Shown here: piece by piece, positions 704 to 21,701 of the stretch | How the letters are laid out: every line of letters starts with the position of its first letter | How positions within the stretch are numbered: position 1 is the first letter of the stretch | Source: Puccinia triticina | Taxonomy: Eukaryota > Basidiomycota > Pucciniomycetes > Pucciniales > Pucciniaceae | Reading direction: 5' to 3' | NCBI RefSeq assembly: GCF_026914185.1 | Contig: NC_070574.1 | Location: 2,418,501 to 2,482,500, forward strand | DNA: 64,000 nt | Position numbers and translations under genes: made by a program | Notes under the pieces: generated by a model | What the model was told of the DNA's origin: nothing | The model's database searches: none | The model's input: only the letters and a program-made list of their open reading frames with translations

Positions 704-2444
704 ATGGGCGATGAAGTCCTCAGACAGTTTATCTTAGATTCCGATCAGGAGGTGCAAGATTCTCCGAACGCCCGGAGGTCCCAAGGAACCTTTGAAAGGT
801 CAATCTGTAGAGACGCTGATTTCATCGACATCGCAAATGTAAGCCTTCTTTTTAGTCTTACCCTCAATCCTAGCAAAGCCACTGGAGCGGGGAATCCGGC
901 GGACCCCGTGCGTAGCGCTCTCATTCGCCGCCAGAAATAAGCAAGCGATGAGTTGTATCATTGACAAAACATTCATTCAGTCCCAGCCAAAGGTTTTGAA
1001 TAACAACAACCGAACTTGCAACAGGCAAGCGGCCACCGTGAGTAGTGCTCGGGGTACACAAACAGAGACATGGATGGAAGGCTGACGCCCTTCTTTTCTC
1101 GACGTTTGCCCGCTCTTCTCGAATTCACAGGCCAAGCGAGCAATGCTCAACAAAAGTCATCCCATTCCCAGTGTTTCCGCCGCTGGCGGTGTCCGCGGCC
1201 GAATGAATGTGCAATCGCACAAGAATCTGCAGACTGCGGAATCTTCACGAACCACTTCCGGCCCAAAATCATCCATTCCAAAGCACTGTCCTCAACCCCC
1301 GACATTCACAACCGTACCAGGTATCGCAGCCCCTCCGCCTCATGCTAAGAAAACTCAAGTCAAGCGACGTCCCCCGTTGCCGGCCACCGAACCTGATACA
1401 AGGGGCCATTACGAAGCCTCATCCTGTCACCAATGTCGTACCAAGACTACTCGACCGAAAATGATCTGCGATCAATCATTCAACCCAAACTGTGTTGTTC
1501 GAATATGTCGCCCCTGTTTAATGGATCGGCCTGCTTACGACGGCATGCCCAAGCTTCGGGGCCCACAATTCCAATTCCAACCCGGCGGGAAAATCCTTTG
1601 CATGAAATGCAGGAATATCTGTCCTTGCATTACGTGTCGGAAGGCGCGGGGTGAGAACCGAGAGATGGGTAACGGTCTGAACGAATTTTACGACTTACGG
1701 GATGAGGCAAAATTGGATGCGCTTTTGGGGAAAAATAAGAAGAAAGACAAAGCTGGGTTCAAGAAGTCGTCACGCCCCTGTCCGAGCCGCGTGGAGAAAG
1801 AGCCGATCGTTGGGAATCAAGATACAAGAACACCCGCGGAGGCCCAAAAGCGCAAGACTAGGCAGCAGGAAGCTGGCTTGGATGAAGTAATTTGCTTGGA
1901 AAAATCTTGGGCCGAGCTTTCCAGCAAACGGGAACGAATCACCTCTGCCGATCGATCCATACCAGGGAGCGGGAGCAGCAAGATCGACGTGAATTTGGAT
2001 ATCCTATCCAAACATACTGGCAAGAGGGCGTCCACGGTTCGAGATTCGTCCGATCTAGACCGGGAACCAGGATGCTCGCGGAAACGAAAGCTATGTGCCG
2101 AGCAGCTTACAGAGATTGATAGCAATTGCGGAGAGGACGACTCGCCGATCACGATGGATCGACCCATCAAGTCAGAGAAATCCATCAAGTCAGAGCGACC
2201 CATCAAGTCAGAGAGTGCTCCAGAAAGCCCTGCGTCGATGGCCTCGATCACACACATTAAGCTCCAACTGTGGGAGCTCGAACTCGAGAAAGCACGGGAA
2301 GAACATGCGCGAAAGATTGCTTCAGCTGACGCGGAGGCTAAAGCTAATATGATGCAGGAGTTCTTGCGCTGTGGGTTGACATTGGAAGATGCCGTGAAGG
2401 CCACGGAAATCTGCCTTTGCCCGGCAACTCGCCCCCAATCGTAG
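704..2444 (+). CDS. zf-4CXXC_R1 (CDCA7-like) zinc-finger protein, paralogue 1
   Basis: Predicted as two exons, 704-838 and 1131-2444 (intron 839-1130, GTAAGC...CACAG, phase 0), giving about 482 residues. The start ATG at 704 gives an N-terminus (GDEVL..F.LDSD) that matches the GDEAL..YALHSD motif of the other paralogues, and exon 2 opens AKRA, like ARR in them. The finger (about 1425-1650) begins CHQCRTKTTRPKMIC and ends CRNICPCITCRK; it has 11 cysteines in the order known for CDCA7. In animals and plants this domain acts with the HELLS/DDM1 remodeller in DNA methylation and binds hemimethylated CpG. After the finger come a basic linker, three successive IKSE motifs (2161-2214), and a helical C-terminus ending in a conserved MMQEFLRCGLTLEDAVKATE block. 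A nuclear chromatin role is inferred. It is the most diverged of the four copies, and exon 1 is the least certain part. Confidence 0.78.
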
Positions 2445-2728
2445 TGTCGATCATTCAAATAATTAGCTTGGAGTTTTACTTTTTTACTACATCTATCCTT
2501 TTTCATTCGGGTTTGCTTTGTCTAATTACTTCTCCATTTGCCCTACAAAATGTCAAATCTCTTTTGGGTTTTACCGCTCATGATTTCTTCTTCCTGTCAA
2601 CAAACCACAACCACATCAATAAAAATTTCCCGCTGCATATGAATCACTTTCAATGTGCATTAATGGTTGACGAGATCTATCTGCAGATTCAAGTGCTGCA
2701 CTCATGTTACAGAAGCAAATGTTTTGAA
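2445..2728. other. 3' flank of paralogue 1
   Basis: AT-rich sequence with a probable 3' UTR (AATAAAAATTT near 2618-2628). No gene was recognised. Confidence 0.35.
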
Positions 2729-2730
2729 TA

Positions 2731-2919
2731 GGGGGTTTCAAACATGGTGCAGGTCCCAGTTCAGGAACCCCAATTCAGGAAAACAAAGTTCCTGCAAAAT
2801 GAATTTCCAAATTATTTCTGTATGTTTTTTGGGTAAAATTTGGTGTGTGTGTTGCAGGTGCCCTGATTTTGTGGATTGGGGGTTCCTGAAACAGGACCTG
2901 CACCATGTTTGAAACCCCC
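2731..2919. mobile_element. Mariner-type MITE, 189 bp
   Basis: The terminal inverted repeats begin GGGGGTTTCAAACATGGTGC and match over about 35 bases. They are flanked on both sides by TA (2729-2730 and 2920-2921), the target duplication of the Tc1/mariner superfamily. There is no coding capacity, so it is a non-autonomous miniature element. Confidence 0.8.
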
Positions 2920-2921
2920 TA

Positions 2922-3825
2922 ATGAAGAAGACAGGGATGGGGATGATACTGAAGCTTCAATCTGGATGTGTTCACGTTTCCACTACATCAGTCATAAGTT
3001 TTTGATGTTGCTTTGCCACGGCTTGTTCAACATTTCTTCTGCTTCCTGTTGTTGCCTTTCAATAGTGGCTTGATTCCCCGCTGATTCCTTTTCTCTTTCT
3101 TCTTCCTTGGCCTCCTGTTTTTGGAAATCTAGTTGTTCCAAGTAATCCAAATAAGAGACTTTCCCACTCACAGGCTAAACAATGCTTGTCTGACCAGAGT
3201 TGGTCCTACCAAGTGTGAAGGTGTCCTTGTAACGGACCAAGCTCATCACTGTTTCCATTTGGATTGGCTTCAATGGGTCCGAGTATTAGTATTGTGTTGT
3301 AGTCTTTGTATATGCATGATAAGCTCTTTGATGGAAATCTTTTTGAGTTCTTCCTGCAAGGTCAGGTTTGAAGCAGTGTTCTCTTTTTGGGACAGGCTAA
3401 CAACTGCTACATGGGTTTTCTTCATTGTAGCTATATTTTCCATGGCCAATCCGTCTAGTCTTGCGAGCCGGGAAAATATGCTTCAATACTTGCTGGCTTG
3501 ATTGATGTCGTTGTATCCTGTTAATTCCTTTTGTCTGTAAGCCTTTTAAAGTCTTATCAACAATGATGGATGCCTTTTGTAATGGTCTCAACATCTCTTC
3601 TCAGCTGTAGCCTGTGGGTAGCTTTGCGCGGATATCATCAATCATGTATGCCTGGATGAGGCTTGCTGGCTTCAATCAGTGATTCAGCTTCCCAAGATGG
3701 TTTGGTCAGTGCATGCACACATCAATTCCACAATGAAATTGTGCTTGTGGCATCACAGTTTTCATCTTTTTAAAGTGTCAAGTAACCGTGTTGCTCTGCC
3801 CGCTGGCCCAACTTGTTACAGTTGC
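2922..3825 (-). other. Unrecognised, possible decayed coding remnant
   Basis: Read on the minus strand, 3600-2930 gives broken stretches rich in K, E, Q and L that would form helices (for example MENIATMKK and EELKKISIKEL), with stops and frameshifts. This resembles an old coiled-coil coding sequence, but I cannot name a family. It ends where the Harbinger element begins. Confidence 0.2.
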
Positions 3826-3828
3826 TTA

Positions 3829-3851
3829 GAGCATTCCCACCGCGGGCCCTA
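3829..3851 (+). repeat. Harbinger left terminal inverted repeat
   Basis: 23 bases starting GAGCATTCCCACC, preceded by TTA. It is the exact reverse complement of 7654-7676. Confidence 0.92.
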
Positions 3852-4272
3852 TCTTTGGGTTGCTAAATGTCACGGCTTGGGGCTGCGCAGCAAGATTTAG
3901 CGCCTGAAACTGCTGCGGCATACACCGCTAGCCTCCATATGAGCCTCTAAAAATTGATGAAAGACACATCCCCGGTCCCCCTGGTTCACTCCCCGCCAAC
4001 AACTCTCCTACCCACCATTTGCTATCCAACCACCACTCATGGATTGACTGGCAATTATCCGGAACTTTATCAACACTCAAGACAACATAATCTCAAATAC
4101 AATCAATTCAACACAACATATAGCAGTTGTTCTTCAAGGTGGCAGGGCAGCTTCTCAAGAAATCCTCCGACAAGAAAGAAAAAGACGTCAAAAAAAACCA
4201 CCAAAACAAGGCGGATCTAGAAAAGGAAGAGCCCCTGACATCCGGCGAGACTTCGAAGCTGGCTACCAGCTC

Positions 4273-5529
4273 TTGTATAAGGACTACTTCTCCGAATCAC
4301 CAAGGTACCCCAATTATAAGTTCCGCCGACGTTTCAGAATGCACAGAAGTCTATTTTTGAAGATTGTCAACAACATCAAGCAGCGCAATGTTTACTTTAC
4401 TCACAGGGCCGATGCCTTAGGGAACTTTGGCTTGCGAGGAATTCAAAAGATCACAGCAGCCCTTCAAATCCTGGCCTACGGTGGATCATTTGACGCAACC
4501 AATGAATATGTCCGTATAGGAGAGTCTACGGCTATGAAGAGCCTCTATAAATTTTGTGAAGCTGTCATTGCGTTGTACGGCACCGAGTATCTCCGAGCTC
4601 CAAACAAGAACAATATTAAAAGATTGTTGGCTATCGGGAAGGAACGCGGCTTCCCTGGCATGCTGGGCTCAATCGACTGCATGCACTGGGAATGGAAAAA
4701 TTTTCCCACCAAGTGGCGTGGTCAGTATCAAGGCAAAGATAAGGTCAGTTCATTCTCTTGCCTATTTTGCATGAGGTCTAATCATTCTACATGGAAGGTT
4801 CCAACCATTGTCTTGGAGGCTGTCGCTTCATACGACTTATGGATCTGGCATGCATTTTTTGGTATGCCCAGCGCCAACAACGACATAAACATCTTGGATT
4901 CATCTCCTGTATTCACCAATTTGATGAATGGTGTCACCCCTTGCTGCAAATATAAAGTCAACGGAACAACATATCACCAGGGATATTACCTTGCAGACGG
5001 AATTTATCCGGACTACTCAACCCTTATCAAGACAATCTCACAGCCACAAGGGCTGGAAAGGAAGGTATGCTGCTTTTTCATTCATCATACTCTGGTATAC
5101 ACAACACTGACAACCAAATACATCTAGCATTTTGCAAAGATGCAGGAGGCTGCGCGAAAGGATGTGGAACGAGCCTTTGGGGTACTTCAGGCCCGCTTTG
5201 CAATAGTCGCTCGGCCAGCATTGACATGGAGTCTTGAAAAGCTTCATTTAGTAATGAAAACTTGTATTATCCTCCACAATATGATTGTGGAGGATGAGAG
5301 AAACCTTAATATCAATAACATCTATGATCCGAACACAGCCAGAGGACGAAACACCCCAACTGACCCCATCAAACCAATCTCAGAGTGTCGGGCCGATTTT
5401 TCAACGTTCATTCAGAATCTTCAGCAAATAAGGAATGCTGATTTGCACTACGCTCTCCGCAGCAATCTCATTGCCCATCTGTGGGCTTGGAAGGGAAAAG
5501 AAACTCACTCGGACGACTCCAACTCTTGA
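4273..5529 (+). CDS. Harbinger transposase (DDE superfamily 4)
   Basis: Encodes the element's DDE endonuclease, which cuts and reinserts the transposon. Exon 1 runs to 5064, then an intron at 5065-5127 (GTATGC...TCTAG), then exon 2 at 5128-5529; the joined frame continues as ERK then HFAKMQEAARKD. First catalytic D is in GSIDCMHWEW, the second in PSANNDINILDS, and the E in DVERAFGVLQ, typical of DDE_Tnp_4. A further in-frame 54-base segment (4744-4797, 18 residues) sits between GKDK and VPTIVLEA, where relatives are continuous, so it is probably a second short intron. No in-frame ATG was found at the left end. The frame extends upstream to about 4120 with basic residues, so the true start may lie in another exon. 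Confidence 0.85.
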
Positions 5530-5834
5530 TAAATTTGTTTTTTTTCACTGTTTTTATGATGAGAATATATCATTTTATTGCTTTGCATATTTCATATATG
5601 TATATATAAAGAATTTTCTGGTTTTCAGCTTGGAAACAAACAATGCATTCATTTTTTGGAGAAATTGCAAGAGAGACAGTTTTGAGAAAGTAAAAATTTG
5701 ACATGGTTATCCAAGGAAAAACAACCAGACAATATGAAGTGGAAAGAGATCAATCCGAGTATTTTTAAGTCAGGATAAAGTCTAAGACAACTATTGGTCC
5801 AGCTCTGGTGCAGGAGTAGGAGCAATAAAGACAA

Positions 5835-6935
5835 CTATTGGTCCGGCTCTGGTGCAGGAGTAGGAGCTGAAGATGACAAGGTTGTTGGACCCTGAGCTGG
5901 AGCTGGTGTCGCGATTTCTTGCTCACTTTGGGCTAAGATCCACTTTCTTTTGAGAGAGTAGTACCGTTTAACATCCTCATCAGCGCCAGTGAGATCCTTA
6001 TTCATGATTGCTTTGTCCGCAAGGTGATTGAGGGTCTTCTGTTGAGCAGACATGGCATTCTGCAACAATAGTTGTTGCTGCTTGACCACTTCAGCTATTT
6101 CAACATGTGCACCAGCCATCTTCTTGAGGTGCTCGTGGTTTGAAGCGTCCAGTTTCTCCTCTTGATATGCTAATTTAGCCTTCTTTCAACCAATTGGTTG
6201 AGTTGATCCAGTGCGAGCTGTCTCATCACCGGAGGCTTCTGAGGACGACTGGGCAGTTTCTGCGGGGGTTGAGCTGGGTAATGAGCCGGGCAATGGGCTG
6301 GAGACAGAGGTATTCACTTTTGAGGAGGGGCCCGACACCTTTTCTGGCTTTTTAAGCTCGGCTTTCTTGTTCATCGCTGTGTTGTAATCAATCCACTTAG
6401 GCGCTTTTGAGAGCAGGTTGTAGCAGGAAATGTATCAGAAGGGTTTTTCATAAAGTTTGGTGTAAAGTGTGAGAGCCATGCTGATCCAATTAGTTGCAGT
6501 AGTTCCGCTCGGATTTTGGTGGTTGATTTGGTTGAAACACCCGTGGAATTTGTTTACTGCATGCTGGATGATGCCAAAATGACTTTTGATGCTCTTTGAG
6601 GGTTGCAGGGGTTCAGAGATCTTCGATTGATAGTGGTTTGTTACGGTTTCCCAAAAAGCCGTTCCAGATTGATCAGTACCCTTCCAACCGTCTTCAGTTG
6701 TTTCAAGCCACGAGGTACAGAGCTGGAGATCCTTGTTCTCAAGATAGTTGGGCGCTTTCTTTTTTTTGGGGGGATTGTCTCTGTCAGACTCGGACTCGCT
6801 GCTGTCTCTGCTGTCGGGTTTGTTTGCTTCAACAGACGCTGGTGGGTGGTCCTCCTCAATCGGCAGCATCTTGTCCGGAGGCTCCGGAGGCTCTTGATTT
6901 TTCTTTTTGACGGCTTTCTTGGGTCTTGGTTTCAC
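5835..6935 (-). pseudogene. Harbinger accessory SANT/NAM-like protein, broken
   Basis: This is the second Harbinger gene, whose product normally binds the element ends and brings in the transposase. Reading on minus: a basic N-terminus (KPRKAVKKK-like), an acidic stretch, then a Trp-rich SANT/Myb-like helix region (CTSWLETTEDGWKGTDQ ... FWETVTNHY), a Ser/Pro linker, and a C-terminal coiled coil (EEKLDASNHEHLKKMAGAH, QQQLLLQNAM). Two in-frame TGA codons interrupt it, near 6432-6434 (after YEKPF) and 6183-6185 (after STQPIG); the reading frame is kept across both. The second fits a CGA to TGA change. It lies tail-to-tail with the transposase gene. Confidence 0.7.
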
Positions 6936-7653
6936 CTTTCTAGCATTCTTTGGGTTCGGACCGGCAACTACAAAAAGAAAAATAAGTAAAAGTTAAAAGA
7001 AGATCAAGTACTCGACTGACCATCTGGCAACGGGATGCTTCTCTTCCTCGATTCATTCTGTGGAGCGGAGAGTACATCTATTTCCATCAGGTCTGTGAGA
7101 AGCATAAAAAAACAAATAAAAACTTTGAACTCTGCCGAAGAAACTAGTCAAAATCTCACTGTCAGTGCTTGGCATGAGCGCTTCAAGCGCCGGGTCGAGA
7201 GGGATGATGTCCATGGTCGGATATTGATATCAAAGGATATCGGGGGTGAGATTGAATGGGTCGGGTTGGAGTTTCACTTTCTCTGGCATGTGACAGTAGG
7301 TTTTGACCAGGAGGGAAAGTCCCTAGGAGAGTCCCTACGAGTCCCTACATGTGGGGACTCGGGCACGAAATTTAGGGCCGGCCTTAAATTTAATTGGATG
7401 ACTTCCCGTCATCATTTAGAGAGCTCTAGATGCCTCTCTAAATCCTAAATTAAGATACCTATCAAAAACTCAACCAGTGCACATGGAAGTAATGAACTGT
7501 AGGGCTAGGAAAACATTTCCCTTTTTGTCAAAAATTAAGAATTTGGATGTGTAAATTGAGATCTGGGAGGCTCCCAGACTCGACGGGAAGTCCTCCATTT
7601 AGCGCCCGCGGTGGGTCGCGTTGGGTCGGTAAATCCCAAATAGGGACCCAATT
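6936..7653. other. Harbinger 3' non-coding part
   Basis: Contains the probable promoter and leader of the minus-strand accessory gene and subterminal repeats: a near copy of the TIR core (CGCCCGCGGTGGG) at about 7602-7614, and GGACTC/GAGTCC repeats near 7318-7362. No other gene seen. Confidence 0.4.
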
Positions 7654-7676
7654 TAGGGCCCGCGGTGGGAATGCTC
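7654..7676 (-). repeat. Harbinger right terminal inverted repeat
   Basis: Exact reverse complement of 3829-3851, followed by the TTA duplication. Confidence 0.92.
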
Positions 7677-7679
7677 TTA

Positions 7680-8140
7680 GCTTTCTCATAAGACGGAGTT
7701 CAATGATCATTGAAGGCTCTCAGGAGGTAAACGCAGCCAGTCATCGATCCAACGGCTTGAGTTCGGGATGGCTTGAACAAAGACAATGGCGAGCTCGCTG
7801 CTCGGCGATAGAAATCAGTTGTAAGAAACCTTCAGAAGCTATTCGTATTACACATTTAATTGTAGAACATGACAGAAATCAGAAATGCAATAAATACGTA
7901 CAGTTTGAACCTTAAGAGACCCACTTGACTGCCTGCAAAATGATGCAGATGAGCCGATCGAGCGCAAGCTTCCATCGCCGGGCCTTGAGCTGTTCATGAG
8001 CTTTGTGTTCAAGCGAGCGTTGCTGAGTGCTGCTGAGTGCTCTATCAATTATATTTATGTGCCTAAAAATACCCATTTAGCCACCCCATCGTTGAAACTT
8101 GAGTATTTGCCACTAGCTTGTTCATCTCTAGAACCGGATC
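7680..8140. other. Intergenic
   Basis: No convincing gene; the short frames here have no recognisable motif. It should include the promoter of the second zinc-finger gene. Confidence 0.35.
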
Positions 8141-8154
8141 GCGGTCAGGTTAGT
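8136..8154 (+). promoter_or_regulatory. Leader exon end and donor, paralogue 2
   Basis: GGATCGCGGTCAG followed by GTTAGT matches the motif upstream of paralogues 3 (14735-14749) and 4 (minus, about 21946-21925). It is read as the 3' end of a 5'UTR exon plus splice donor (GT at 8149). The acceptor before the ATG at 8340 is not certain. Confidence 0.45.
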
Positions 8155-8339
8155 CTATTCTTTTGATCTCTTCATCCTTTTGATTGGCAGTCATGTCTAA
8201 CTAAAATGCGATGTTAACCTACCTAGAGGTGTTCGATTGGCCTCGTAATTTCAGCGCTGTGCGTAGCTTGACAAGACCTCCCTTTACCCGCTTTTAAGTC
8301 AATTGGATCCACAAAGCCTGTGTAGATTCACGTATCGCC

Positions 8340-10311
8340 ATGCTACCCGGACCCTCCTCGAAACTCTGCTCTAACGAAAGCATTCTTGCCTCGCCTGAAA
8401 CTGGCGTAACAGCAAATAGTTCGGGAGATGAAGCGCTGGAGCCTTACGCGTTGCACTCTGATGACTCTGATGACCAAGATGCTCCTCCAAACACGCCAGG
8501 TACTTCAATACATGCGCAAGCCCCCAAGCCCCCCCGAAGCAATATCCGACCGATCAATCCTCCAGAAACCAATTCGCCCGGCATAATCTTCATGCGAGAA
8601 ACCCCAGATAACCACGGAGAGGTTGAGATCAGAGGCCCGGTCAACGTGGACAAAATCTTCGGCGACGGTAGTAGCCGAGCAGCCGCCGTAAGTGGCACCA
8701 TGTCTTGATTGCTGTTTCTTATGGGAGCTCAGCTGACGAATTCTTGTGGTGCGTTTATTGCTTGATAGGCGAGGCGAATATTGCGTAACATATCATGGTC
8801 TGCCGATGAACAATTGTTGGAACCCGTCCCGATTTCTGCCACGGACAACGTCACGTCGCTCAGGTCACCTTCACCAACTCGAGCTTCTCCCAGCATCCCA
8901 GCAACTCCAGCTTGTGTGGGTGAACCCTCGGCTACCAGGGGCCATTGCCCAATAGGCCTATCATCACACACAAGCCCGACTGACCTCGAGCCCGCGGAAC
9001 GATCGCAAACCAAGATGTGCCCCAGCTTACTTCGCTCAGAAAGCTCGTCCAGCTCTGATCTCTCAAGTCTACCCAGCACTCCACCACCTCCGCCTGATAG
9101 GAGTCGCAAAAACGATTTTCTAAAGAGGCAACAAAATCCAATCCCGCCAGTAGCCACCGAGCCCGATGAAACAGGACAATACGAATCATCAAGCTGCCAT
9201 CAATGCCGTGCCAAGACTACCCGACCCAAGATGATTTGTGATCAATCCCAGAATCCTAACTGTATCATCCGAGTGTGCAATCGCTGCTTAATCACACGAG
9301 ACTCTTACGACGGCGTACCTGAGCTTCGGCCTCCGATATTTGAATTCGTGCCGGGTGGTAAGATGCTGTGTGTGAAATGCAGGGGTATATGCCCTTGCGT
9401 TGCTTGTCGGAGGCAGCGGGGTGAACAAGTAGATGGATGACCCACGACCACGAAGACGGCCGGGCAGCGCTTTGAGTTCGTTTAACGGCTTGACGTCCCA
9501 GGGCAAGAAGAAGGAATTATTGAAAAAGAAACAAATACAAAAAAAGACCATCCTCAGTAAACCATCTGGCTACGGCACCGGCCTGTGTGATTCGGCACAA
9601 GCCAAACGCGAACGACCTTCAGCAGCCCCTCCAGCTGCCCGAAAGAGGATGAAAAAACATGAGGCAACCGCTTTGGACGATATCGTCTGCTTGGACCAAC
9701 CTCCGCAAAATTCTGCCGGCAGCTCTAGTCGAATTGCGCCTGTCAAGCGGTATATCCTACCCGCTGGTGTGGACAGCTTTCAACTTCCAGCGAATATGTA
9801 CAGCCACTCGAGCCAGAGGTCGACTGCAATCCAAGTAGGTCCCGCTACCTCAAGAGCGTCGATGGCTAGGGATTCCGCCGCACCAAAGCCGGGACGAGGC
9901 CGTCCTCGAAAGGCCAAGCCTTGCGGGAAGCAGCTTGTAAATCAAACTCTCCCCCCTCAGGCGCAAGCTAAGATCGAGCACGGCATGGACAACACGCTGA
10001 TGAATCAACTCCTCCAGTCCAACAACCGATTAGCAGAAGCCGCATCCGGCATGGCTTCGATCCTGCAAAACCAAGAGAATCCCCCGGACTCGACGACATC
10101 CGAGGATGCACGTTTGGAGCGCTCCGAGAAACAACTCAAGCTCAAGATGCGCGAAATCGAGCTCAAGAACGCGGCCAATGAGGCCGAGCGACAGAAGGCC
10201 AAGGCGGAGGGCTTCGAAAAGGCAAAAATGATGCAAGACTTCTTGAAGTCCGGACTGAGCTATGAAAAGGCCATGGAAGCTACACTCATCTTTCTTGGGC
10301 CGCCACTTTGA
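8340..10311 (+). CDS. zf-4CXXC_R1 (CDCA7-like) protein, paralogue 2, frameshifted
   Basis: Exon 1 is 8340-8687, the intron 8688-8768 (GTAAGT...GATAG, phase 0), and exon 2 starts at 8769 with ARR, as in paralogues 3 and 4. The N-terminus has GDEALEPYALHSDD, then a Pro/Ser-rich region. The 11-cysteine finger spans about 9190-9415 (CHQCRAKTTRPKMIC to CRGICPCVACRRQRG). Eight codons later the frame ends at TGA 9438-9440, but homology continues in the +1 frame from about 9433 to 10311: a basic linker, a canonical AT-hook (PGRGRPRK, 9889-9912) and the C-terminal helix with KAKMMQDFLKSGLSYEKAMEAT. Alignment with paralogue 4 suggests about ten extra bases at the junction. Either this is a pseudogene or assembly error, or a short finger-only protein is made. 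The shared gene plan supports a chromatin role, as for paralogue 1. Confidence 0.75.
9889..9912 (+). other. AT-hook motif coding segment
   Basis: Encodes PGRGRPRK, an AT-hook with the central GRP core that binds the minor groove of AT-rich DNA. Paralogues 3 (TRDGRPKAK) and 4 (PKRGRHLK) have degenerate versions at the same place. Confidence 0.65.
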
Positions 10312-11090: not shown

Positions 11091-11093
11091 TTT

Positions 11094-11624: not shown

Positions 11625-12924
11625 CCTTTAAGAATCAGCCGGCTTTCAGGCGGAAGCACTTGTTTTGTAGGAAGACAAGGAGGAGCGATAGTCGGGGGAA
11701 CGTGGCTCGGAAGGAGCCGATGGAGCTGAGCAAGGTGCGGAGCTCGCTGGAGGATGTGATGTGGATGGGGTGTGGGCCGGGCAAGCGAACTTAACACAAG
11801 TCCCTCCTTGTGCTTGCAGGGCGCGAGCACCCTCCCGCTTGCGGGAGGGACTTGTGCCTAATGTCCCAAATTTGGCTTGAGGCTGCCCAGCCATTTGTCC
11901 AAAATTCCCTTCAAACCCACCTATCACCGTATACCCTTCTGATTTCTTCACAGCCTTGAGTAACATTAGAATCAGCTTTCATTTCTACATAATATCATGT
12001 ATTCAGCACAATACCTACCCCCATCCCCTCAAAGAGAAATTGATGTAAAAAACCCCACTTTAGAGCCTATCCAGCCTGGTGTAGACCGGATAGCGCGTCC
12101 GGCCTAAACACATGAAAATAAGGTTGCACATCTCTACCGCAAGCTGCCTGCATGGGATGGCACTCTTTGAGAGACCAGTCATTTTTAAGTTAATACCAAA
12201 CAAACCCGTGAGAGCATGTCCAATGGCGACCTTCGGATGATCCAATGGCTTGTTCACATTGCTCAAGAAGAGCCCTTGCAAGAATGGCCGCTGAGCGGTC
12301 AGTGATGAATGGATTTACTTGAAAAAACTTGTACAATATAGCTAAGATCAAGGCCTACAAACTGGCACATGAGGCATGGAAATTGAAGCCGAAAGAGGGG
12401 AGTAAAAAGAGATGTAATTTCAAAAAACACGATTTTCTCTGTAAAACCCCGTCAGCCTCAGGCCAAGCATGGGACTTTAGTCATAAGCCTCTCCTTTGGA
12501 GACACTTTGCGCCTCCTTGGAGAGGCTTAGTTAAGCTTGCGGGCAAGGAGGAGGCAGGTGTAGAGGGACACATCTGAGGATGTGGGTTGGTGAGGGTGGG
12601 GGAGATGGAGGGTGGCGGTGATCTGATGAGCAGACTTGGAAAAAATGGGGCGGGTGGATGGGTGAGGGCCAAGGGTGACGTGTCCCTCTGATGGGCGGAC
12701 TTTGTCTTGGCCCCCTCTGCCCTTTTTTGGGGGTGAGAGCATCTCCAACGGTCCCTGGATTGCGCAGACCCCTGCAGACCCTGGGTCGCGGCCCTGGACC
12801 ACATGTAACGGGGTATCCCAGGCTTTGTTCACGGCGGACTCTCCAGAAATAGAGACACAACAAGAGGCTGGACCAACTTGTTGTCAGCAATACCACAACT
12901 TGCCCATCAAGCCACACAGACAGA
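11625..12924. other. Intergenic, repeats and MITE ends
   Basis: No gene was recognised. Visible structures: an inverted repeat around 11794-11862 (ACAAGTCCCTCC / GGGAGGGACTTGTG), an inverted pair AAGCCTCTCC / GGAGAGGCTT at 12487-12532, and a MITE-like end GAGCATCTCCAACGG at 12737-12751, the same end motif as the Harbinger-type MITEs at 13751 and 22019. Confidence 0.4.
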
Positions 12925-13473
12925 TGACCACCTTCTGGTCATCCTTCCAATTCTCAAACACCCACCGGTCATCCTTTCAATGACCGGCCATGTGCATCAT
13001 GCCCGGTCATCAATAGGATATCCAGTCATGGTCATCATTCTCGATGCCTGGTCATCATTCTTGATGCCCGGTCATTGGTCTTGATGAACAGTCATCAGTC
13101 TTGATGCCCGGTCTCTGGTCTTAATGACCAGCCATCAGTCTTGATGACCAGGCATTGGTTTTGATGACCGGTCATCAGTCTTGATGCTTGGTCATTGGTC
13201 TTGATGACCAGTCATGAGTATTGATGACCGGTCATCAGTCTTGATGCCCGGGCATCGGTTTCTATGACTGGTCATCAGTCTTGATGCCCGGGCATCAGCT
13301 TTGATGACCGGTCATCAGTGTCAATGCCCGGTAATTGGTCTCAATGACCTGTCATCAGTCTTGATTCCCGGTGATCGGTCTCAATGACCGGTCATGGGTA
13401 TCAATGCCCGGTCATCCTATTGATGACCGGTCATGGGCATTGATGCCCAGTCATCCTATTGATGATTGGTCAT
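12925..13473. repeat. Palindromic satellite, ~20-bp unit
   Basis: About 25 imperfect tandem units of roughly 20 bases, of the type GGTCATCAGTCTTGATGACC. Many units meet to form the 12-base palindrome ATGACCGGTCAT with a central CCGG. It is the same core as the arrays at 51.9, 55.2 and 57.3 kb. No coding sense. Confidence 0.85.
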
Positions 13474-13751
13474 CAGCAGCGAGATCCAATTGAATGAAAA
13501 GAGGATTGGCCGGTAGGTGAGGTAGCGTGCGGTATAGTGTGCGTGGGGTGCAAGCTGGTGCAAGGTGCGGCCGACAAGGGCCGAGTATTGGGTTGGAGCA
13601 GACTTGCCACAAGTGGAGGGCTGTGGTGAGTTGAGGCGACTTGGGAGGTGTTTGGCGAGTCGGATAGCAAGTCTGTTGGACCCCAAAAACTCGCGCGACT
13701 TGCTAAATTGGGGTTGCAAGTCCTGCTTTAGCGAGTCCGTTGGAGATTCTC
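13474..13751 (-). mobile_element. Harbinger-type MITE (partial)
   Basis: Read on minus it starts GAGAATCTCCAACGGACTCG, next to TTA (13752-13754), and matches the copy at 22019-22238 on plus over more than 200 bases. The far end merges with the satellite and is not defined. TTA and the GAG-ATCTCC end suggest a PIF/Harbinger-mobilised MITE. Confidence 0.6.
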
Positions 13752-13988
13752 TTAGCCTGGAGGCCAGCATCTTGCCACTGTTCCCACCGGATGTTGTCAG
13801 TTCAAGCATGTTTGTCGGCAAACCGACCCCAGGCAAGTTATGTTAAACTTGCCTGAAGTCAAGTGCCGGCTGTTTGGCTGCCAATTCGGCTGACCGCAGG
13901 CCAACAGGTGTGCGGTCAATCAGGCGGGTGTTTTGTCTTTGACGGCAGTTTCAACGGGCAAAACCTAAATCTGCGCAACTGCCGTGTA

Positions 13989-14143
13989 TGGTGTTCAAAA
14001 TTGCATGTCACAGTTTACATAAAATCATAAAGCCAATTTTGGCTGGGAGATGTCAGTGTGCATAAAACTTAAAGTGACATCTCCCAGCCAAAATTGCAGT
14101 TTATGATTTTATGTAAAAAAATCTCATGCAATTTTGAACACCA
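13989..14143. mobile_element. Fold-back MITE, 155 bp, TA target
   Basis: Arms of about 70 bases starting TGGTGTTCAAAATTGCATG are nearly perfect reverse complements around a short loop. TA flanks both ends (13987-13988, 14144-14145), as for Tc1/mariner MITEs. RNA from it would form a long hairpin. Confidence 0.78.
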
Positions 14144-14734
14144 TAATTATATCCCATACAAATTTTGATTGGGTCTGGCTTATAACGCACTCCAAAGAAT
14201 TACAGTCATGCACTCCCAAAAAGGAGTGAAAGTCCTCTCCAAAAAAAAGTGATCAAAATGGGAGTGTCAAGAGGTTCACTCCAATATGTATTGCAGTGAA
14301 AACTCATGCACTCAAATCACTCCAATAGGGGGGTTCGCTGTTCTCCTCCACGCTCCGCTTGTCAACCACATTGTTCTCCTCCACGCTACGCAAGACAGAA
14401 TTAAAACATTTTATCTTTCACCTTAAACAAAAAGTTGCAGTACCATACTAAGCTAGCGTTGCTGGTAACGGTAACGATAACGATAATGATGAAGAATCGG
14501 CCCGTTTTCGTTGTGTTCCCCGTTATCGGTAACATAACTACCAACTGGTCCCTATCACAGGTTTCAAGTTTGCTGCATGCCTTTGTGACATGTGCTAGAG
14601 CGCGGGACTTCCTGGGTTTGCCGGGGGTATGAATTCTAGGTGGCATCGCAAATAGTTGCAAATTGATCCCAGCAGAGTTTCAACTTGAATATTCCATTCT
14701 ACCTAACTTGTTTACTTTCCGAGTGGATCGCAGT
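14144..14734. other. Intergenic, GGAGTG hairpin-related sequence
   Basis: 14200-14330 has repeated CACTCC / GGAGTG motifs in both orientations, related to the hairpin at 54996-55160. Next come two copies of TTCTCCTCCACGCT (14340-14390). No gene seen. Confidence 0.35.
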
Positions 14735-14743
14735 CCAAGTCAG

Positions 14744-14842
14744 GTTAGTTTGGCTTTTTCCTTTCTTCCTCCTGTTCACCGGCTTTGTCTCCACCTGGAA
14801 CAAGAGTTCATCTGACTAGATTTCTCCTGTTAATTGATCTAG
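14744..14842 (+). promoter_or_regulatory. 5'UTR intron of paralogue 3
   Basis: GTTAGT...ATCTAG, 99 bases. The exon before it ends GGATCGCAGTCCAAGTCAG and the next exon begins CCTTCGCAAATC; both are conserved in paralogue 4 (CCTTCGTAAATC after its acceptor). A spliced leader is therefore likely. Confidence 0.55.
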
Positions 14843-14891
14843 CCTTCGCAAATCTACTCTTATAGCTTGAAGGCGGTTACTTCCTTTCGCC

Positions 14892-17001
14892 ATGCCACGA
14901 CGCTCCTCCAATCGCTCATCGAACCCAAGCATTCTTACCTCGCATGAAACTGGTGTAGCGGCTAGTACTTCAGGAGATGAAGCGCTGGAGTATTACGCCT
15001 TGCACTCCGATGGCCACCATACTTCTCCAAACACGCCAGATGCTTCCACATCTGCCCGAGCTCCTCTACCACCCCCGAACGATTTCCGACCAACCAATCC
15101 TCCCGGAAACAATTCACCCAACATTATGGGGCAAACCCCAGCTGACGACCAAGGTATTGAGATCACAGGCCCGGCCAACGTGGACGAACTATCCGGCGAC
15201 AGTAGCAGCGTGAGTGATATCGGGTTTTGATTGCTTTATTCTATAGAAACTTACCTGATGACTTCTTGTGGTCATCCTTTTTTTGGGTTGAAAGGCGAGG
15301 CGAACATCGGATAACAAATTGCGGTCTGCCGATGAGCAGTTACTGGAACCCGTCTCTCGTTCTGCCCCAGACAATGTCACATCGTCCAGGTCACGTTCAC
15401 CACATCAAGCTTCCCCAAGCAACCCAGCAGCTCCAACTCGGCCTACGGAGCCGTCGCAAACCGAACCACACTTCAACTCATTTCTGTCAGACACTTCCAC
15501 CCTCTCTGATCTGACAAGTCTGCCTAGCAGCCCAGCGGCTCCACCTGATATGTGCCCCAAAGATGATTATCGATTCGTACTGGAGCATCCAATCCCGCCA
15601 CCAGTCGCCGCAACCGATGAAATAGGACAATACGAATTCTCGACCTGCCACCAATGCCGCGCCAAGACCACCCGACCCAAGATGATTTGCGATCGATCGC
15701 AAGATTCCAGCTGTTTCAATCGAGTTTGTGACCGCTGCTTAACCGCACGAGCAGTATACGGCAGCGTGCCCGAGCTTCAGCCTCCGATATTTGAATTCGT
15801 ACCAGGTGGCAGTATGCTGTGTGTGAAATGCAGAGGTGTCTGCCCTTGCGTTTATTGTCGCAGGAACCGGGGTGAAAATGAACAGAACCGACGAGGGCTG
15901 CATCAAGGCTTGACGTCCCAGGGCAGGGAGAAGGAACTGCTGAGGAATAAACGAATGCAAGAAAAGGCCAAGCTGAAAAAAGAATCAGGGCGCAGCGCGG
16001 GCCTTCGTGATTCAGCACCAGCCAAGCGCAAACGAGCTTCAACAGTTCCTCCAGCTGCTCGGAAGAAGGGGAAAAAAGAAGGGTCGGACCAATCTCCCGC
16101 GAATTTCGCCGGCAACTCTAATCGTCGAACTGCGTCTGTAAACCGGTCCATCTTATCCGCCGGGGGTGACAGCATTCCAGCGAATACGCATAACCAATTG
16201 AGCCAGAGGTCAAGTAGAACTCGAGCAGGCTCTACTAACTTGAGAACTTTGATTCCTCGGAGTTATACCATACCGCAACTCACACGAGACGGTCGTCCAA
16301 AAGCCAAACCTGGCCCAAAGAAGCGTGAAAGCCAAACTCTTCCCTCTCAGGTGCAAAACGAGATCGATCCCGACTTAGACAAGACACTGGTCGATCAACC
16401 CCTCCAGTCTGATAAACGATTAGAAGAAGCCGCACCCGCAATGACTTCCCTCCTACCCAGCGAGGACAGCCCTGGTGAAAACCAAACTTTTCCCTCTCAG
16501 GCGCAAAAGGAGACCAATCCCGACTTAGACAAGACACTGATCGATCAACCCCTCCAGTCTGATAAACGATTAGAAGAAGCCGCACCCGCAATGACTTCCC
16601 TCCTACCCAGCGAGGACAGCCCTGGTGAAAACCAAACTTTTCCCTCTCAGGCGCAAAAGGAGACCAATCCCGACTTAGACAAGACACTGATCGATCAACC
16701 CCTCCAGTCTGATAAACGATTAGAAGAAGCCGCACCCGCAATGACTTCCCTCCTACACAGCGAGGACAGCCCTTCGGACCCGGAGATGTCTGACCTTGAA
16801 CGTTTGGAGCGTTCGGAGAAACAGCTCGAGCTCAAGTTGCGTGAAATCGAGCTTCAAAACGCGGCCGATGAGATCAAGAGACAGAAGGCTAAGGGAGAGG
16901 CCTTCGATAAGGCTAAGATGATGCAAGACTTCTTACAGTCGGGATTGAGCTACGAAAAGGCCATGGAAGCTACACTCACATTTCTGGGGCCGTCAACTTG
17001 A
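14892..17001 (+). CDS. zf-4CXXC_R1 (CDCA7-like) protein, paralogue 3
   Basis: Two exons, 14892-15209 and 15295-17001, with a phase-0 intron (GTGAGT...GAAAG), give about 674 residues, the longest of the four. The start CGCC-ATG is shared with paralogues 2 and 4. Order: acidic N-terminus (SGDEALEYYALHSD), Ser/Pro-rich segment, 11-cysteine finger (about 15645-15870, CHQCRAKTTRPKMIC to CRGVCPCVYCRRNRG), basic region rich in KKGKK, a degenerate AT-hook (about 16285-16320), three 50-residue repeats (16327-16776), and the conserved C-terminal helix (LERSEKQLELKLREIEL ... KAKMMQDFL.SGLSYEKAMEATL). The frame is open throughout and all key cysteines are kept, so it is probably functional. A nuclear, DNA- or chromatin-binding role is inferred from the finger family; the partner and target are unknown. 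Confidence 0.85.
16327..16776 (+). repeat. Three in-frame 150-bp repeats in paralogue 3
   Basis: Units start at 16327, 16477 and 16627. Units 2 and 3 are almost identical; unit 1 differs slightly. Each encodes about 50 residues with DLDKTL.DQPLQSDKRLEEA and AMTSLL, while the other paralogues have one unit (for example MDNTLMNQLLQSNNRLAEA in paralogue 2). The multiple of three keeps the frame. Confidence 0.9.
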
Positions 17002-17340
17002 TCATCGCATAATAAGCTTGGATCAACAATTAAGTTTCTTGGATATCATCCTCAGGTGATTGAAATATTTTTTCTATGATCTTGTTTTTCCTTCTTCCTC
17101 GTGCCTCAAAATGTTTGACATACTTGTTCTTTTCAAGCAGAGTAGTGAGGGCACACAAATCCTGTTGTAATCTTGATATCATTTCCTTTTCCCCTTTCCT
17201 TCCCCTATCTATTGTTTACTCCAATCCATGTTGAATCTGCATGCTTGGCCTTCTGTCCCACCATTTGCCCTACATCATCTTCACAGCTCATTAATAATTT
17301 AATTAGAAAACATATCAGGGGTAGAATGTTGTGATCAGCT
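17002..17340. other. 3' flank of paralogue 3
   Basis: Low-complexity T/C-rich sequence; probable 3' UTR and spacer. No gene seen. Confidence 0.3.
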
Positions 17341-17399
17341 TTAGGGAGTGTTTGCAGTGGTGTAGAAATAAAGGTTGGGTAGGGTGTAGAAATGACCAC

Positions 17400-18990
17400 T
17401 TCTGCTTTCTTCAAGAATGTATGTCTGGGCTTGAGTGATTATCAATGTCTTGGCTCTGCGCTGCTATGTTCTACTAGCCTTCAGTGCTCCACAATGAGCC
17501 TAATCTATAGTGTAATAATCTGCAAATGATGAAGCTCCACACTCTGCAAGCACAAGTCCACAGTAGCAATGAAGCAAGTAAGCAAAATAAGGGTCCATAA
17601 AAATGTTCTAATACTCTAGTGCGTCTGTAAGTGTAGGTACAATGATGAGCAGTAAGTAAGATAATGAAAAGGAAAAGAGAAGAGAAACCATGAGCCTTCC
17701 CTCCTTCTCTGTTCCTCTCCGCCCAACTCCTGCACATCACATTCCCAGGCTCAGCTCCTCTCTGACGCTTGACCTCCCACGTCCTCTGTGTAGCCCCCGT
17801 CAGTCAGTCTCTCACCAGCACCTCCACCCCAGCTCCACCCACTTCAGCTGCCCTGGGTCACCCGCTGACACGCCACTGCTATCAGTCCCCGCATTTGGTC
17901 CACCGCAGTCCAGCTCTTGCCCTTTGCCCGCCACCCAATCCAAACTACGCGGTCCACAATCCGCGCTTTCCATAAGCTTTTCCTGTTGTGCTTTTCTGGC
18001 ATCATCCTCAGTGCTTATGTTGCCAAATGCACTCTGAGCTCAGCCGCTTGTGCATTCCAGCCCGTGCTATTGTCAAGTGGACATTCTACCACACTTGTCA
18101 ATGTAAAACTCTGGAGCAGTTGCTATGTAGTGTGGATTGTGGGTATGGCTATGTAGTAGCCTGTCAGAATGTGATGACAGCTACAGACCGTTGTGAGAAT
18201 GAAAGCTGGTTGGTGGGTAGAAAAGTCCACTAGCCGCCTCTTTCAAGAATATATGTGTCTGGGCTGAGTGATTATCAGTGTCTTGGCTCCGCACTGCTAC
18301 TTTCCACTAGCCTTCAGTGCTCCTCAATGAGCCTGATCTATAGCGTAATAATCTGCAAGTGAAGAAAGCTCCACACTCCGCAAGTAAAAGATAAGGTCAC
18401 GTAAAAACTCTTCTAATACTCTAGTATGTCCGTAAGTGTAAGTACAATGATGAGTCCTCCGTAAGATGATGGAAAACAAGGAAAGAGAAGAGAAACCATG
18501 AACCTCCACCCCCTTCCTTCCCTCCATGCCATTTGCCGTTCCCACCCAATCCAACATTTTCCCGCACTAATCTGTCAGCTCCGCCTGCTTTCCCGCACAT
18601 CACTATCCCAGACTCTGCTCCTCTCCAATGCTTGACCTCCCACGCCCGTCCGTCAGTCTCTTGCCACCGCCTCCGCCCCAGCTCCACCCGCTGGTGGAAC
18701 CCACTTTGGCTACCTTGGCTCACCTGCTGACGCACCGCTTCTACCAGCCCACGAGTGTAGTCCGCCGCAGTCCAGCCCTGTCTTTTGGCTCCGGTCCAAC
18801 TCTCCAATCCAAACTCCGTGATCCGTGATCTGTGCATTCTATCTGTGCGCAACTTTCCGTAAGCTTTCTTAGCGTGATTTCTGATGTCATCCTCAGTGCT
18901 TGTGTCACCGTAATGCACTCTGCGCTCAGCCTCTCTGTGCATTCCTGCCTGCGCTATCACCAAGTGGACATTCTACCATGCCTGCCTATA
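17400..18990. repeat. Direct tandem duplication, ~0.8-kb units
   Basis: About 17410-18110 and 18245-18990 align in the same orientation. Shared landmarks: GAGTGATTATCA, CTAGCCTTCAGTGCTCC, TCTAATACTCTAGT, GAGAAGAGAAACCATGA and CAAGTGGACATTCTACCA. The second unit ends near a TATA-like CTATATAAATC (18983). They may be two LTRs or a duplicated non-coding unit. No open gene with known motifs is present. Confidence 0.6.
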
Positions 18991-19109
18991 TAAATCACCA
19001 CACCGTTCATTGGGAGGGTTGGTTCCTCTTGATGACTAGGACAGACCCCGGTAAATACTCTTGATGATTGGTTCAGACCCTTCTGTCCCAGTCATCAAGA
19101 GGGCTGATT

Positions 19110-19493
19110 CAGGGTGTAAACGGGTCGGGTTTGGGTCAAAAAACAGCACCCAAACCCAACCCAACATTTAGCGCAGGTTGAGTTGGGTCAGGGCAGATTT
19201 TAAAATATGCTGCCCAAACCCAACCCGATGTCATACTATTTTGGGTTGGTTTGGGTCTCGGGTTGACCCGACCTCATAGGTGCCAAAAGCCCCCAATTTG
19301 ACTGTTGGAGGCGTCATAGTTGGGTTGCAGGCTGACCCGATTAGGAAATAGGCTGCCCAAACCCAACCTGACAATTTTACAAGTCAGGTTGGGTTTGGGT
19401 CATGTCATTTTCTTCAAGAATGTGCCCAAACCCAACCCAAAACCCGACGGGTCTCGGGTCGGCTTTGGGTTGGCCCGCCCAATTATCATCCTG
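19110..19493. mobile_element. hAT-like non-autonomous element, (GGGTTTGGGT)-rich
   Basis: Starts CAGGGTGTAAACGGGTCGGG and ends GGCCCGCCCAATTATCATCCTG, roughly inverted ends of a hAT-type pattern. The inside is dense in AACCCAACCC and its complement. The flanking 8-mers do not match, so the class is tentative. Confidence 0.4.
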
Positions 19494-19503
19494 AATTGAT
19501 ATA

Positions 19504-19754
19504 ATCAATGGCTGGGAGAATCCCCTCCCGGTCATCAATGAGCTTGCTGACTGGGAATCCCTCCCGGTCAGCGTGTGTATGTATTGCTGACCGGGAGAGA
19601 TTTCTCACGGGCAGTGAGTATATCAGAGCAGGTACCTCACCCGGTACACGGTATCCCGCTGAGCACACGCCGGTGGGTACGGGTGTTGAGAATTTGCAAA
19701 ATTTCCGGCCGGTAACCGCACCCGCAGTGGGTACCCGGGTGCAAGAGGCCATCT
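19504..19754. mobile_element. Truncated hAT-like element end with palindromic DNA
   Basis: Has two CCCTCCCGGTCA palindromic modules, a GGTACCC-rich part, and an end GGCCATCTCTA like the right end of the hAT-like element at 51454. The opposite end is missing, probably lost. Confidence 0.4.
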
Positions 19755-20207
19755 CTAAGAAAATTTACTCCTGCTTACTCCAAATTGTACTCCTAGGAGG
19801 AGTTTAGTCCAATTATATCGGACCCAATGCAGTTGCCAAGGAGGATTAGTTACCATAACTAATCCTCCCTTAATCCGCAACCAATGCGGATGCTCTAAGC
19901 AACAGAGTCATTAGCTATAAAAACAACAGGACAAGTTTGGGACAGAAGACAAAACATGCATATTCACTCTGGACTGAGAATAAACAACAAGGTAAGGAAA
20001 GGGGAAAAGAAAGGGACAAGAGAAAAATTACGACATAATTTGTGAGTAGTCCAAGTGTCTAGCACTACTCTGCTTGGAAAGAACGACAGTGTCAAAAATT
20101 TTAAGACGCTAGGAAGATAAATACAAGAAGCAAAGATGACTATTATAGAAAATAAGTTAATCCCTGAAGGATGATCTCCGAGAGGCTTGATTTTTGAAAT
20201 GCGGTGA
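19755..20207. other. Intergenic with a small fold-back repeat
   Basis: 19763-19898 carries inverted AGGAGGATTAGTTA / TAACTAATCCTCC and GCATTGG-type repeats, MITE-like. The rest (19900-20207) is the 3' flank of the minus-strand zinc-finger gene. No gene seen. Confidence 0.35.
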
Positions 20208-21701
20208 TCAAGTCGACGGTCCAAGGAATGTGATAGTAGCTTCCATGGCTTTTTCGTAGCTCAATCCAGACTTTAAGAAGTCCTGCATCATCTTAGCCTT
20301 CTCGAAGGCCTCTGCCTTAGCCTTCTGTCGCGCGGCCTCATCGATCGCGTTCTGAAGCTCGATTTCGCGCATCTTGAGCTTGAGCTCCTTCTCCGATCGC
20401 TCCAAACGCGCATAGTCGGACATCTTCGGGTCCGAGGGGTTCTCTTTGCTTTTTATGAGCGAAGCCATGCCGGATGCGGCTTCTACTAATCGTTTATTGG
20501 ACTGGATAAGATGGTCCACCATTGTGTTGTCCACCTCGCGATCGATCTCCTTCGGATTAGAGGGGAGAGTTTGGTTTCCAAGCGTCGTCGCACTAGGATT
20601 AGCTTTTAAATGACGGCCTCGTTTGGGTTTTGGTTCGGCGTAATCCCGAGCCATCAACCCTGTCATGGTAGTGGGATTGACAGACGCAGTTTGAGTAGAA
20701 TTGCCGGTTGAATTTGCTGGAAATTGGTCCGAGAAGTTGATATCGCCCCACAAGGCACCCCCTTGTTTTTTTCTCCTTTTTCGAGTAACTGGAGAAACTG
20801 CTGAAGGTCTTTCGCGCTCGGCTGGTGCTGAATCACGAATGCCCGCGCCCCAGCTTGATGCTTTCTTCAGCTTGACCCTTTCTTGGATTTGCTTCTTCTT
20901 CAACAGCTCCTGCTCCCTGCTCTGTGATTTCAAGCCTTGAAGCGAACTCAGAGCGTTATCCGGTCGCCCTCGTCGGTTTTCTTCTTTTTCGCCTCGCTGC
21001 CTCCGACAAGTGGCGCAAGGGCAGATACCTCTGCATTTCACACACAGCATCTTGCCACCTGGTACGAATTCAAATATCGGAGGCTGAAGCTCAGGTACGC
21101 CGTCGTACACTGCTCGATTGACCAAGCAGTGGTCGCACACTCGACTGAAACAGTTCGGATCCTGTGATTGATCGCAAATCATCTTGGGTCGGGTGGTCTT
21201 GACACGGCATTGATGGCAAGTTGAGGATTCGTATTGTCCTGTTTCATCGGGTTCGGTGGCTGGTGGCTGGAGGTTTGCAATATTCCATCTGCATGACGTT
21301 CGCCGCGCCTTTCGATGCAAAAAAAGGATGACGAGAAGTCATCAGCTTGCCCCCATAAGATAAAGCAATCACAACCCGGAATCGCTTACGCTACTATCGA
21401 TGCCGAATTTTTTTTCCCCGTTGACCGGAGCTGTGGTCTCAATACCTTGGTCGTCCCCTGGGGTTTGCCCCTTAATGTTGCGCGAGTTGTTTCCGGAAGG
21501 ATCGGTTGGTCGGATATTGCTCAGGGGAAAATTCGGAGCTGGAGCAGAGGTGAAAGCTCCCGGCATGTTTGGAGGAGTATCTTGGTCATCAGAGTGCAAA
21601 GCGTAAGACTCCAGAGCTTCATCTCGAGCTGCTGCGGCAGTTTCATACAAGGCGAAAATGTTTGGACTAGAGGAGCGATTGGAGGAGCGTCGGGGTAGCA
21701 T
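20208..21701 (-). CDS. zf-4CXXC_R1 (CDCA7-like) protein, paralogue 4
   Basis: Minus-strand gene with exons 21701-21390 and 21308-20208. The phase-0 intron (GTAAGC...GAAAG) is at the same site as in the other paralogues. Product about 470 residues. The start ATG at 21701, in CGCCATGCTACC, is chosen over an upstream in-frame ATG (21764) because paralogues 2 and 3 start there. N-terminus MLPRRSSNRSSS and DEALESYALHSDD; the linker between exon 2 start and finger is much shorter than in paralogues 2 and 3. The finger lies at about 21217-20993 (CHQCRVKTTRPKMIC to CRGICPCATCRRQRG, 11 cysteines). Then basic linker, degenerate AT-hook (PKRGRHLK) and the C-terminal helix with KAKMMQDFLKSGLSYEKAMEAT. 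The frame is intact. Orientation is opposite to the other three, so the cluster grew by more than simple tandem duplication. Confidence 0.85.

What the first reader, a model, noticed from the sequence alone, without database searches (positions are those of the whole stretch)
704..21701. Cluster of four CDCA7-type (zf-4CXXC_R1) zinc-finger genes
Seen: four genes in 21 kb share the 11-cysteine finger, a phase-0 intron at the same site and a C-terminal AKMMQ(D/E)FL..GL helix of their own. Known: in animals and plants CDCA7 binds hemimethylated CpG and recruits the HELLS/DDM1 remodeller; genomes usually have one or a few such genes. Inference: a local, lineage-specific expansion of a methylation-linked reader in a transposon-filled region. 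The C-terminal block beside this finger could be an undescribed family signature. This is the best candidate in the window for a new system.
Basis: partly seen in the sequence, partly recalled or inferred. Interest (0 to 1): 0.78.

Follow-up and report, generated by a model that had tools for sequence, protein, structure and literature searches.

The report
CDCA7-like fingers fused to transposon helper domain
A wheat rust fungus carries a small gene family in which a CDCA7-like DNA-binding zinc finger has been joined to the tail of a helper protein from jumping genes, and both halves are still kept by natural selection.

Summary
The window is Puccinia triticina chromosome 17A. The four fingers are real: each scores over the PF10497 cut-off, keeps 11 cysteines and follows a phase-0 intron. 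In this assembly copy 2 is frame-broken just after the finger; an intact protein exists in another isolate. The cluster is larger: two more copies on C17, one of them a conserved 'parent' gene, and a degraded one on C12.

The main correction: the C-terminal block is not private. It is the C-terminal half of the accessory protein of Harbinger-like DNA transposons (hhalign probability 99.8, E 7.8e-28, 134 columns). The parent lacks it, and the finger stands where the transposon protein has its own N-domain. Finger (dN/dS 0.21-0.36) and C-block (0.04-0.23) are under purifying selection; the linker is near neutral (0.60-0.92). One copy matches a transcript-sized, spliced sequence.

By the published criterion they are class II, not CDCA7 orthologues: G294 is lost and Q275 replaced. 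PF10497 enrichment in wheat rusts was already published (PMC5295586). I found no report of the chimera; its function is inferred.

The parts
704..2444 (+). Copy 1 (A-type gene): exons 704-838, 981-1037, 1131-2444; finger 1425-1637; transposon-like C-half from about 2076 (SRKRK) to 2444
   Evidence: exon 3 differs at 2 of 437 residues from P0017 (PtB15_17B223, haplotype B)
8340..10311 (+). Copy 2 (B-type): exon 1 8340-8687, exon 2 from 8769, finger 9195-9407, TGA at 9438-9440; C-half in another frame 9433-10311. Broken in this assembly
   Evidence: P0002 of another isolate is intact there
14892..17001 (+). Copy 3 (B-type): exons 14892-15209 and 15295-17001, finger 15646-15858, transposon-like part matched at 16690-16998, with an in-frame repeat before it
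   Evidence: P0003 (PtA15_17A208)
20208..21701 (-). Copy 4 (B-type): exons 21701-21390 and 21308-20208, finger 21218-21006, transposon-like C-half about 20606-20208
   Evidence: P0001, a spliced match, differs at 1 of 366 exon 2 residues and at none of exon 1
4048..6992 (.). Neighbouring PIF/Harbinger element of another type (Plant_tran transposase +, NAM-associated accessory -); not the donor

Best explanation
A conserved rust gene with a CDCA7-like (class II) zinc finger was duplicated in an ancestor of the wheat rusts, and a duplicate exchanged its long C-terminal part for the C-terminal half of a Harbinger-like transposon's accessory protein. The chimera multiplied into an A-type and several B-type genes, and both modules were kept by selection as host genes. 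Shown: the modules, their homologies, the parent without the transposon part, the selection pattern, one spliced transcript-sized match. Inferred: the direction transposon to host; that the finger binds DNA, possibly at CpG in a methylation-dependent way; and that the helical C-half makes dimers and docks onto its ancestral kind of partner, a Harbinger-family (DDE_Tnp_4) transposase or a domesticated relative. The protein would be a chromatin regulator at transposon-rich or methylated DNA, in the style of the domesticated Harbinger helper proteins HDP2, ALP2 and NAIF1.
For: C-half homology to the accessory protein: hhalign 99.8, E 7.8e-28, 134 columns. Transposase in 18 of 25 donor loci and 0 of 11 finger-side stretches. 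Transposon N-domain near the C-half at 18 of 25 non-finger places and 0 of 6 finger places (counted by hand). Parent with finger 93% identical to Phakopsora, own C-terminal part, no transposon part. dN/dS low in finger and C-block, near 1 in the linker. Chimeras in three Puccinia species. R274 and R304 equivalents kept in all six C17 copies. Accessory proteins of Harbinger elements bind the transposase (PMC9710019, passages).
Against: No binding, localisation or expression data. The C-half tree is unrooted, with finger genes and transposons each on one side (97/96), so the direction is not shown by it. Q275, G294 and S330 equivalents are not kept. The database search with the C-half returned no transposon protein. 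No partner transposase gene was identified. Copy 2 is broken here.
Confidence: 0.5

Rival explanations
1. The C-half is only a dimerisation helix that the finger gene picked up; the proteins are DNA-binding regulators with no remaining link to transposases.
For: AlphaFold2 models a long helix 398-450 and a helix 455-466 at pLDDT 83-97. No transposase lies near the finger genes.
Against: The most conserved part includes the short helix and the MMQDFLxSGLSxExAxEAT motif shared with the transposon proteins, more than a plain coiled coil needs; C-block dN/dS is as low as 0.04.
Confidence: 0.25
2. The chimeras are host decoys: the C-half captures the transposase of Harbinger-like elements and keeps it from working.
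For: The donor elements are present in the same genome, 25 non-finger places; tandem copies under selection.
Against: Direct evidence is lacking; the C-block shows strong constraint rather than fast change as in an arms race; no element activity was measured.
Confidence: 0.1
3. The proteins are CDCA7 or CDCA7F orthologues that recruit HELLS to hemimethylated CpG.
For: PF10497 over cut-off; 11 cysteines, R274 and R304 kept; class II finger as in fungal CDCA7F (PMC10538959, passages); DNMT1-like exon.
Against: Q275 and S330 replaced, G294 absent. If any copy is the CDCA7F orthologue it is more likely the parent, which lies outside the window. HELLS was not tested.
Confidence: 0.1
4. The chimeras are themselves transposon genes: an element captured a finger.
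For: Transposon-derived C-half; P. graminis has the finger in one protein with a Tet-like dioxygenase, and rust transposons carry such dioxygenases (PMC12730594, passages).
Against: No donor-type transposase in the window or in 10 further finger-side stretches. Similarity between copies ends about 70-260 bases outside the genes, apart from short separate matches. Few copies, clustered; orthologues in three species; selection. A specific search for terminal repeats and target duplications was not made.
Confidence: 0.05

Closest known systems
CDCA7 / fungal CDCA7F (zf-4CXXC_R1 proteins)
   Same: 11-cysteine PF10497 finger; class II substitution and longer spacing between cysteines 3 and 4, as described for CDCA7F; R274 and R304 kept
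   Different: G294 missing, Q275 and S330 replaced; a transposon-derived C-half follows; CDCA7F is described without such a part (PMC10538959, passages)
Domesticated Harbinger accessory proteins (NAIF1, ALP2, HDP2, insect MADF genes)
   Same: Host genes derived from the second protein of Harbinger-type elements and kept by selection (PMC9710019, passages)
   Different: Those keep a Myb-like/MADF DNA-binding domain; here only the C-half was kept and a CDCA7-like finger stands in front. No partner transposase gene was found here
PHISTA and related Puccinia Harbinger elements
   Same: Accessory protein without a Myb/SANT Pfam match beside a DDE_Tnp_4 transposase (PMC12730594, passages)
   Different: The finger genes have no donor-type transposase beside them and lack the transposon N-domain. 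Whether the donors here are PHISTA (TA target duplications) was not tested
P. graminis PGTG_19665 and PGTG_05453 (P0022, P0023)
   Same: The same rust finger joined to another module
   Different: Modules are CDC37_N and a Tet-like 2OG-Fe(II) oxygenase; the R304 equivalent is P

Membership tests
zf-4CXXC_R1 domain family (PF10497) | Score over the curated cut-off of 22.7 bits | tested here: met
   31.3, 37.7, 32, 34.1 bits for the window copies
CDCA7 (class I zf-4CXXC_R1) | 11 signature cysteines | tested here: met
   6 of 6 C17 copies; spacing between cysteines 3-4, 4-5 and 6-7 differs from human
CDCA7 (class I zf-4CXXC_R1) | All three ICF residues R274, G294, R304 | tested here: not met
   R274 and R304 kept, G294 missing in 6 of 6 C17 copies
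CDCA7F (fungal class II) | Class II finger, variable spacing between cysteines 3 and 4 | tested here: met
   7 residues between cysteines 3 and 4 against 4 in human; G294 equivalent absent
CDCA7F (fungal class II) | Falls in the CDCA7F clade | not tested
   No CDCA7F reference sequences were fetched; the finger tree holds rust proteins and human only
CDCA7F (fungal class II) | HELLS present and bound | tested here: inconclusive
   146 SNF2 matches, HELLS not told apart; binding not testable
Harbinger accessory protein | Homologous C-half | tested here: met
   hhalign 99.8, E 7.8e-28
Harbinger accessory protein | Its N-domain, and a transposase beside it | tested here: not met
   N-domain at 0 of 6 finger places; donor-type transposase in 0 of 11 finger-side stretches
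Domesticated transposon gene | Present in several species and under purifying selection | tested here: met
   Three Puccinia species; dN/dS of 12 of 12 finger and C-block comparisons below 0.4
Domesticated transposon gene | No element ends around it | tested here: inconclusive
   Similarity between copies ends just outside the genes; terminal repeats and target duplications were not searched for

The most novel reading that the evidence does not exclude
In Puccinia, host genes physically couple a CpG-methylation-sensing finger to the transposase-docking module of Harbinger-like transposons. The fungus would thereby steer a transposase-type protein, its own or a transposon's, by DNA methylation state: an independent counterpart of the Arabidopsis HDP1/HDP2 and ALP1/ALP2 systems, built by swapping the DNA-reading domain.
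Probability: 0.22. Interest if true: 0.75.

Novelty: new variant of a known kind. Interest (0 to 1): 0.55.

Why it matters
It would explain the published enrichment of PF10497 genes in wheat rusts as, at least in part, a host gene remade with a transposon part. It also gives a clean test case: the unfused parent, the donor elements and the chimeras coexist in one genome, and selection acts on both modules but little on the linker. If the finger reads methylation, these genes would link transposon biology and DNA methylation in fungi with DNMT1 and DNMT5 but without the DIM-2 and RID enzymes (P. graminis, PMC8444563, passages).

Tried and rejected

Rows left out: 2 of 18 transposon loci lacked the motif used (L058, L062). 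4 fragments or duplicates (L041, L044, L032, L034)., P0008, P0011 and P0012 (finger incomplete in the model); P0013, P0018 and P0024 were missed by the motif used. One search took 25 of the 30 loci (5 are finger genes). The first residue comparison, was shifted by one frame and was redone. Statements that something is not in print rest (listings) and on term searches in single papers.
Full report
What the window is. The window lies at C17:2418501-2482500 of a 122.8 Mb, 18-contig genome. Protein matches PtA15_17A208 and PtA15_17A213, on a contig of the same length (4,350,819), identify it as Puccinia triticina chromosome 17A.

The observation. The four fingers are PF10497 domains, 31.3 to 37.7 bits against a cut-off of 22.7. 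Copy 4's protein also matches solved CDCA7 chains 8yv8 and 8tle at E about 4e-4. All four have 11 cysteines at the same spacing. The intron before the finger exon is phase 0, with GT..AG, in copies 2, 3, 4, the sixth copy and the parent and in copy 1. Copy 2 is broken in this assembly: the finger frame ends at TGA 9438-9440 and the C-half continues in another frame. The deposited protein of another isolate (P0002) is intact there.

The cluster is larger. Of 7 PF10497 matches in the genome, six lie on C17 between 2.3998 and 2.5309 Mb. The seventh, on C12, is a different gene with a weak WSD match (E 0.017, below cut-off). A degraded A-type copy lies at C12:5.171-5.177 Mb. The gene at C17:2399657-2400058 (minus) is what I call the parent: its finger region is 93% identical to that of a 970-residue Phakopsora pachyrhizi protein, against 61-75% for the other five C17 copies. 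It has the same first-exon motif and intron, and a long C-terminal part of its own that matches the Phakopsora protein and not the transposon proteins.

The C-terminal block comes from a transposon. A genome search with the last 68 residues of copy 2 gave 30 matches, 6 of them finger genes. The rest lie mostly in open frames of an accessory protein, in the loci that I viewed often with a DDE transposase on the opposite strand (output partly cut). The transposase pieces score as DDE_Tnp_4; the accessory protein has no Pfam match over cut-off. A 134-residue transposon query matches the four B-type finger copies at 36-41% identity over about 105-130 residues, among 34 matches in all. Comparing 12 finger C-halves with 16 transposon C-halves by hhalign gives probability 99.8 and E 7.8e-28 over 134 columns; in the A-type proteins the likeness begins at SRKRK..A, as in the transposon protein. 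As a control, the transposon accessory proteins match the four finger genes of the window and not the accessory protein of the other Harbinger element there. A transposase lies within the fetched stretch in 18 of 25 donor loci (16 of 22 places), and in 0 of 11 finger-side stretches, some overlapping, including the whole window. The transposon protein's own N-domain lies within 3 kb at 18 of 25 non-finger places and at 0 of 6 finger places (counted by hand; the query was partly typed). So the finger occupies the place of that N-domain.

Age and direction. Chimeras occur in P. graminis and P. striiformis, in A-type and B-type forms. In the tree of 24 C-halves the finger genes are one side of a branch (97/96), but the tree is unrooted. 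The direction transposon to host is inferred: the parent and its Phakopsora relative lack the C-half, while two transposon branches have it.

Selection. Among the four B-type copies (2, 3, 4, 6), Nei-Gojobori dN/dS is 0.21-0.36 for the finger and 0.04-0.23 for the C-block, and each of the 12 comparisons departs from equal rates at p < 0.004 (Fisher). The linker between them gives 0.60-0.92, with 4 of 6 comparisons not significant. Near-identical transposon copies give ratios not different from 1 in 7 of 7 comparisons, one of them without synonymous change; two comparisons between older transposon copies give 0.17 and 0.19. The pairs are not independent, and these are simple pairwise estimates; branch models were not run.

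Expression. P0001, from a 1952-base ENA contig, is copy 4 read across the spliced intron; exon 1 is identical and exon 2 differs at one residue of 366. I take the contig for a transcript; its record was not seen. No RNA-seq was examined. Public models of copy 3 and the sixth copy (P0003, P0006) end before the C-block although the genomic frame is open.

What the finger may read. In human CDCA7, R274 contacts the methyl group, Q275 reads the unmethylated strand, R304 and S330 touch the backbone and G294 is structural (PMC11343034, passages). All six C17 copies keep R274 and R304, replace Q275 (T, A, A, V, T, V) and S330 (I, V, V, A, A, A), and lack G294. By the criterion of PMC10538959 (abstract and passages) this is class II, as in fungal CDCA7F. 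DNA binding is plausible, hemimethyl specificity doubtful. A DNMT1-like exon is present; HELLS was not resolved.

Mechanism. Shown: modules, homologies, selection, one spliced match. Inferred: DNA binding by the finger, and dimer or partner binding by the C-half, which AlphaFold2 models as helices 362-390 (pLDDT 54-72), 398-450 and 455-466 (83-97 from residue 401 on). In the zebrafish Harbinger element the accessory protein binds the transposase and is needed for its nuclear localisation, and such pairs have been domesticated as HARBI1/NAIF1, ALP1/ALP2 and HDP1/HDP2 (PMC9710019, passages). I judge a chromatin regulator of that style the most likely reading.

What is known already. PF10497 was reported as enriched in wheat rusts against eight other basidiomycetes (log2 ratio 4.63, q 1.7e-3), without further comment on it in the section that I read (PMC5295586, section 15 and passages). 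Puccinia Harbinger elements with a Tet-like dioxygenase and a third protein without Myb/SANT domain were described as PHISTA (PMC12730594, passages); the terms zinc finger, CDCA7 and 4CXXC do not occur in its main text. No paper of the library holds 4CXXC with Puccinia, or CDCA7 with transposase, fusion and fungal.

A wider pattern. The same rust finger is joined to CDC37_N and a Tet-like dioxygenase in P. graminis, and to a peptidase C1-like domain in Melampsora and an unnamed source. These may be true fusions or merged gene models; I did not check.

Noticed in passing
window 4048-6992: A PIF/Harbinger element with a Plant_tran transposase (+) and a NAM-associated accessory protein (-), of another type than the donor of the C-half.
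   Followed up: partly
window 16477-16755: Two identical in-frame 43-residue stretches, 150 bases apart, in copy 3 just before its C-block, with a diverged third copy before them.
   Followed up: no
P0022 and P0023 (P. graminis PGTG_19665, PGTG_05453): CDC37_N, zf-4CXXC_R1 finger and Tet-like 2OG-Fe(II) oxygenase in one predicted protein, two similar copies.
   Followed up: no
P0020 (Melampsora larici-populina) and P0018 (unnamed source): Finger joined to a peptidase C1-like domain; P0018 has two finger stretches.
   Followed up: no
whole genome G000: At least 152 matches to the Tet-like oxygenase family PF20515 (150 of 252 candidates scored).
   Followed up: no
L008 3112-6811 (C12:3.113-3.117 Mb): A separate zf-4CXXC_R1 gene with a weak WSD/DDT-type match (E 0.017, below cut-off), perhaps like plant DDR class II proteins.
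   Followed up: partly
C12:5171152-5177495: A degraded A-type chimera: finger and C-half pieces in separate frames, the finger pieces some kb apart.
   Followed up: partly
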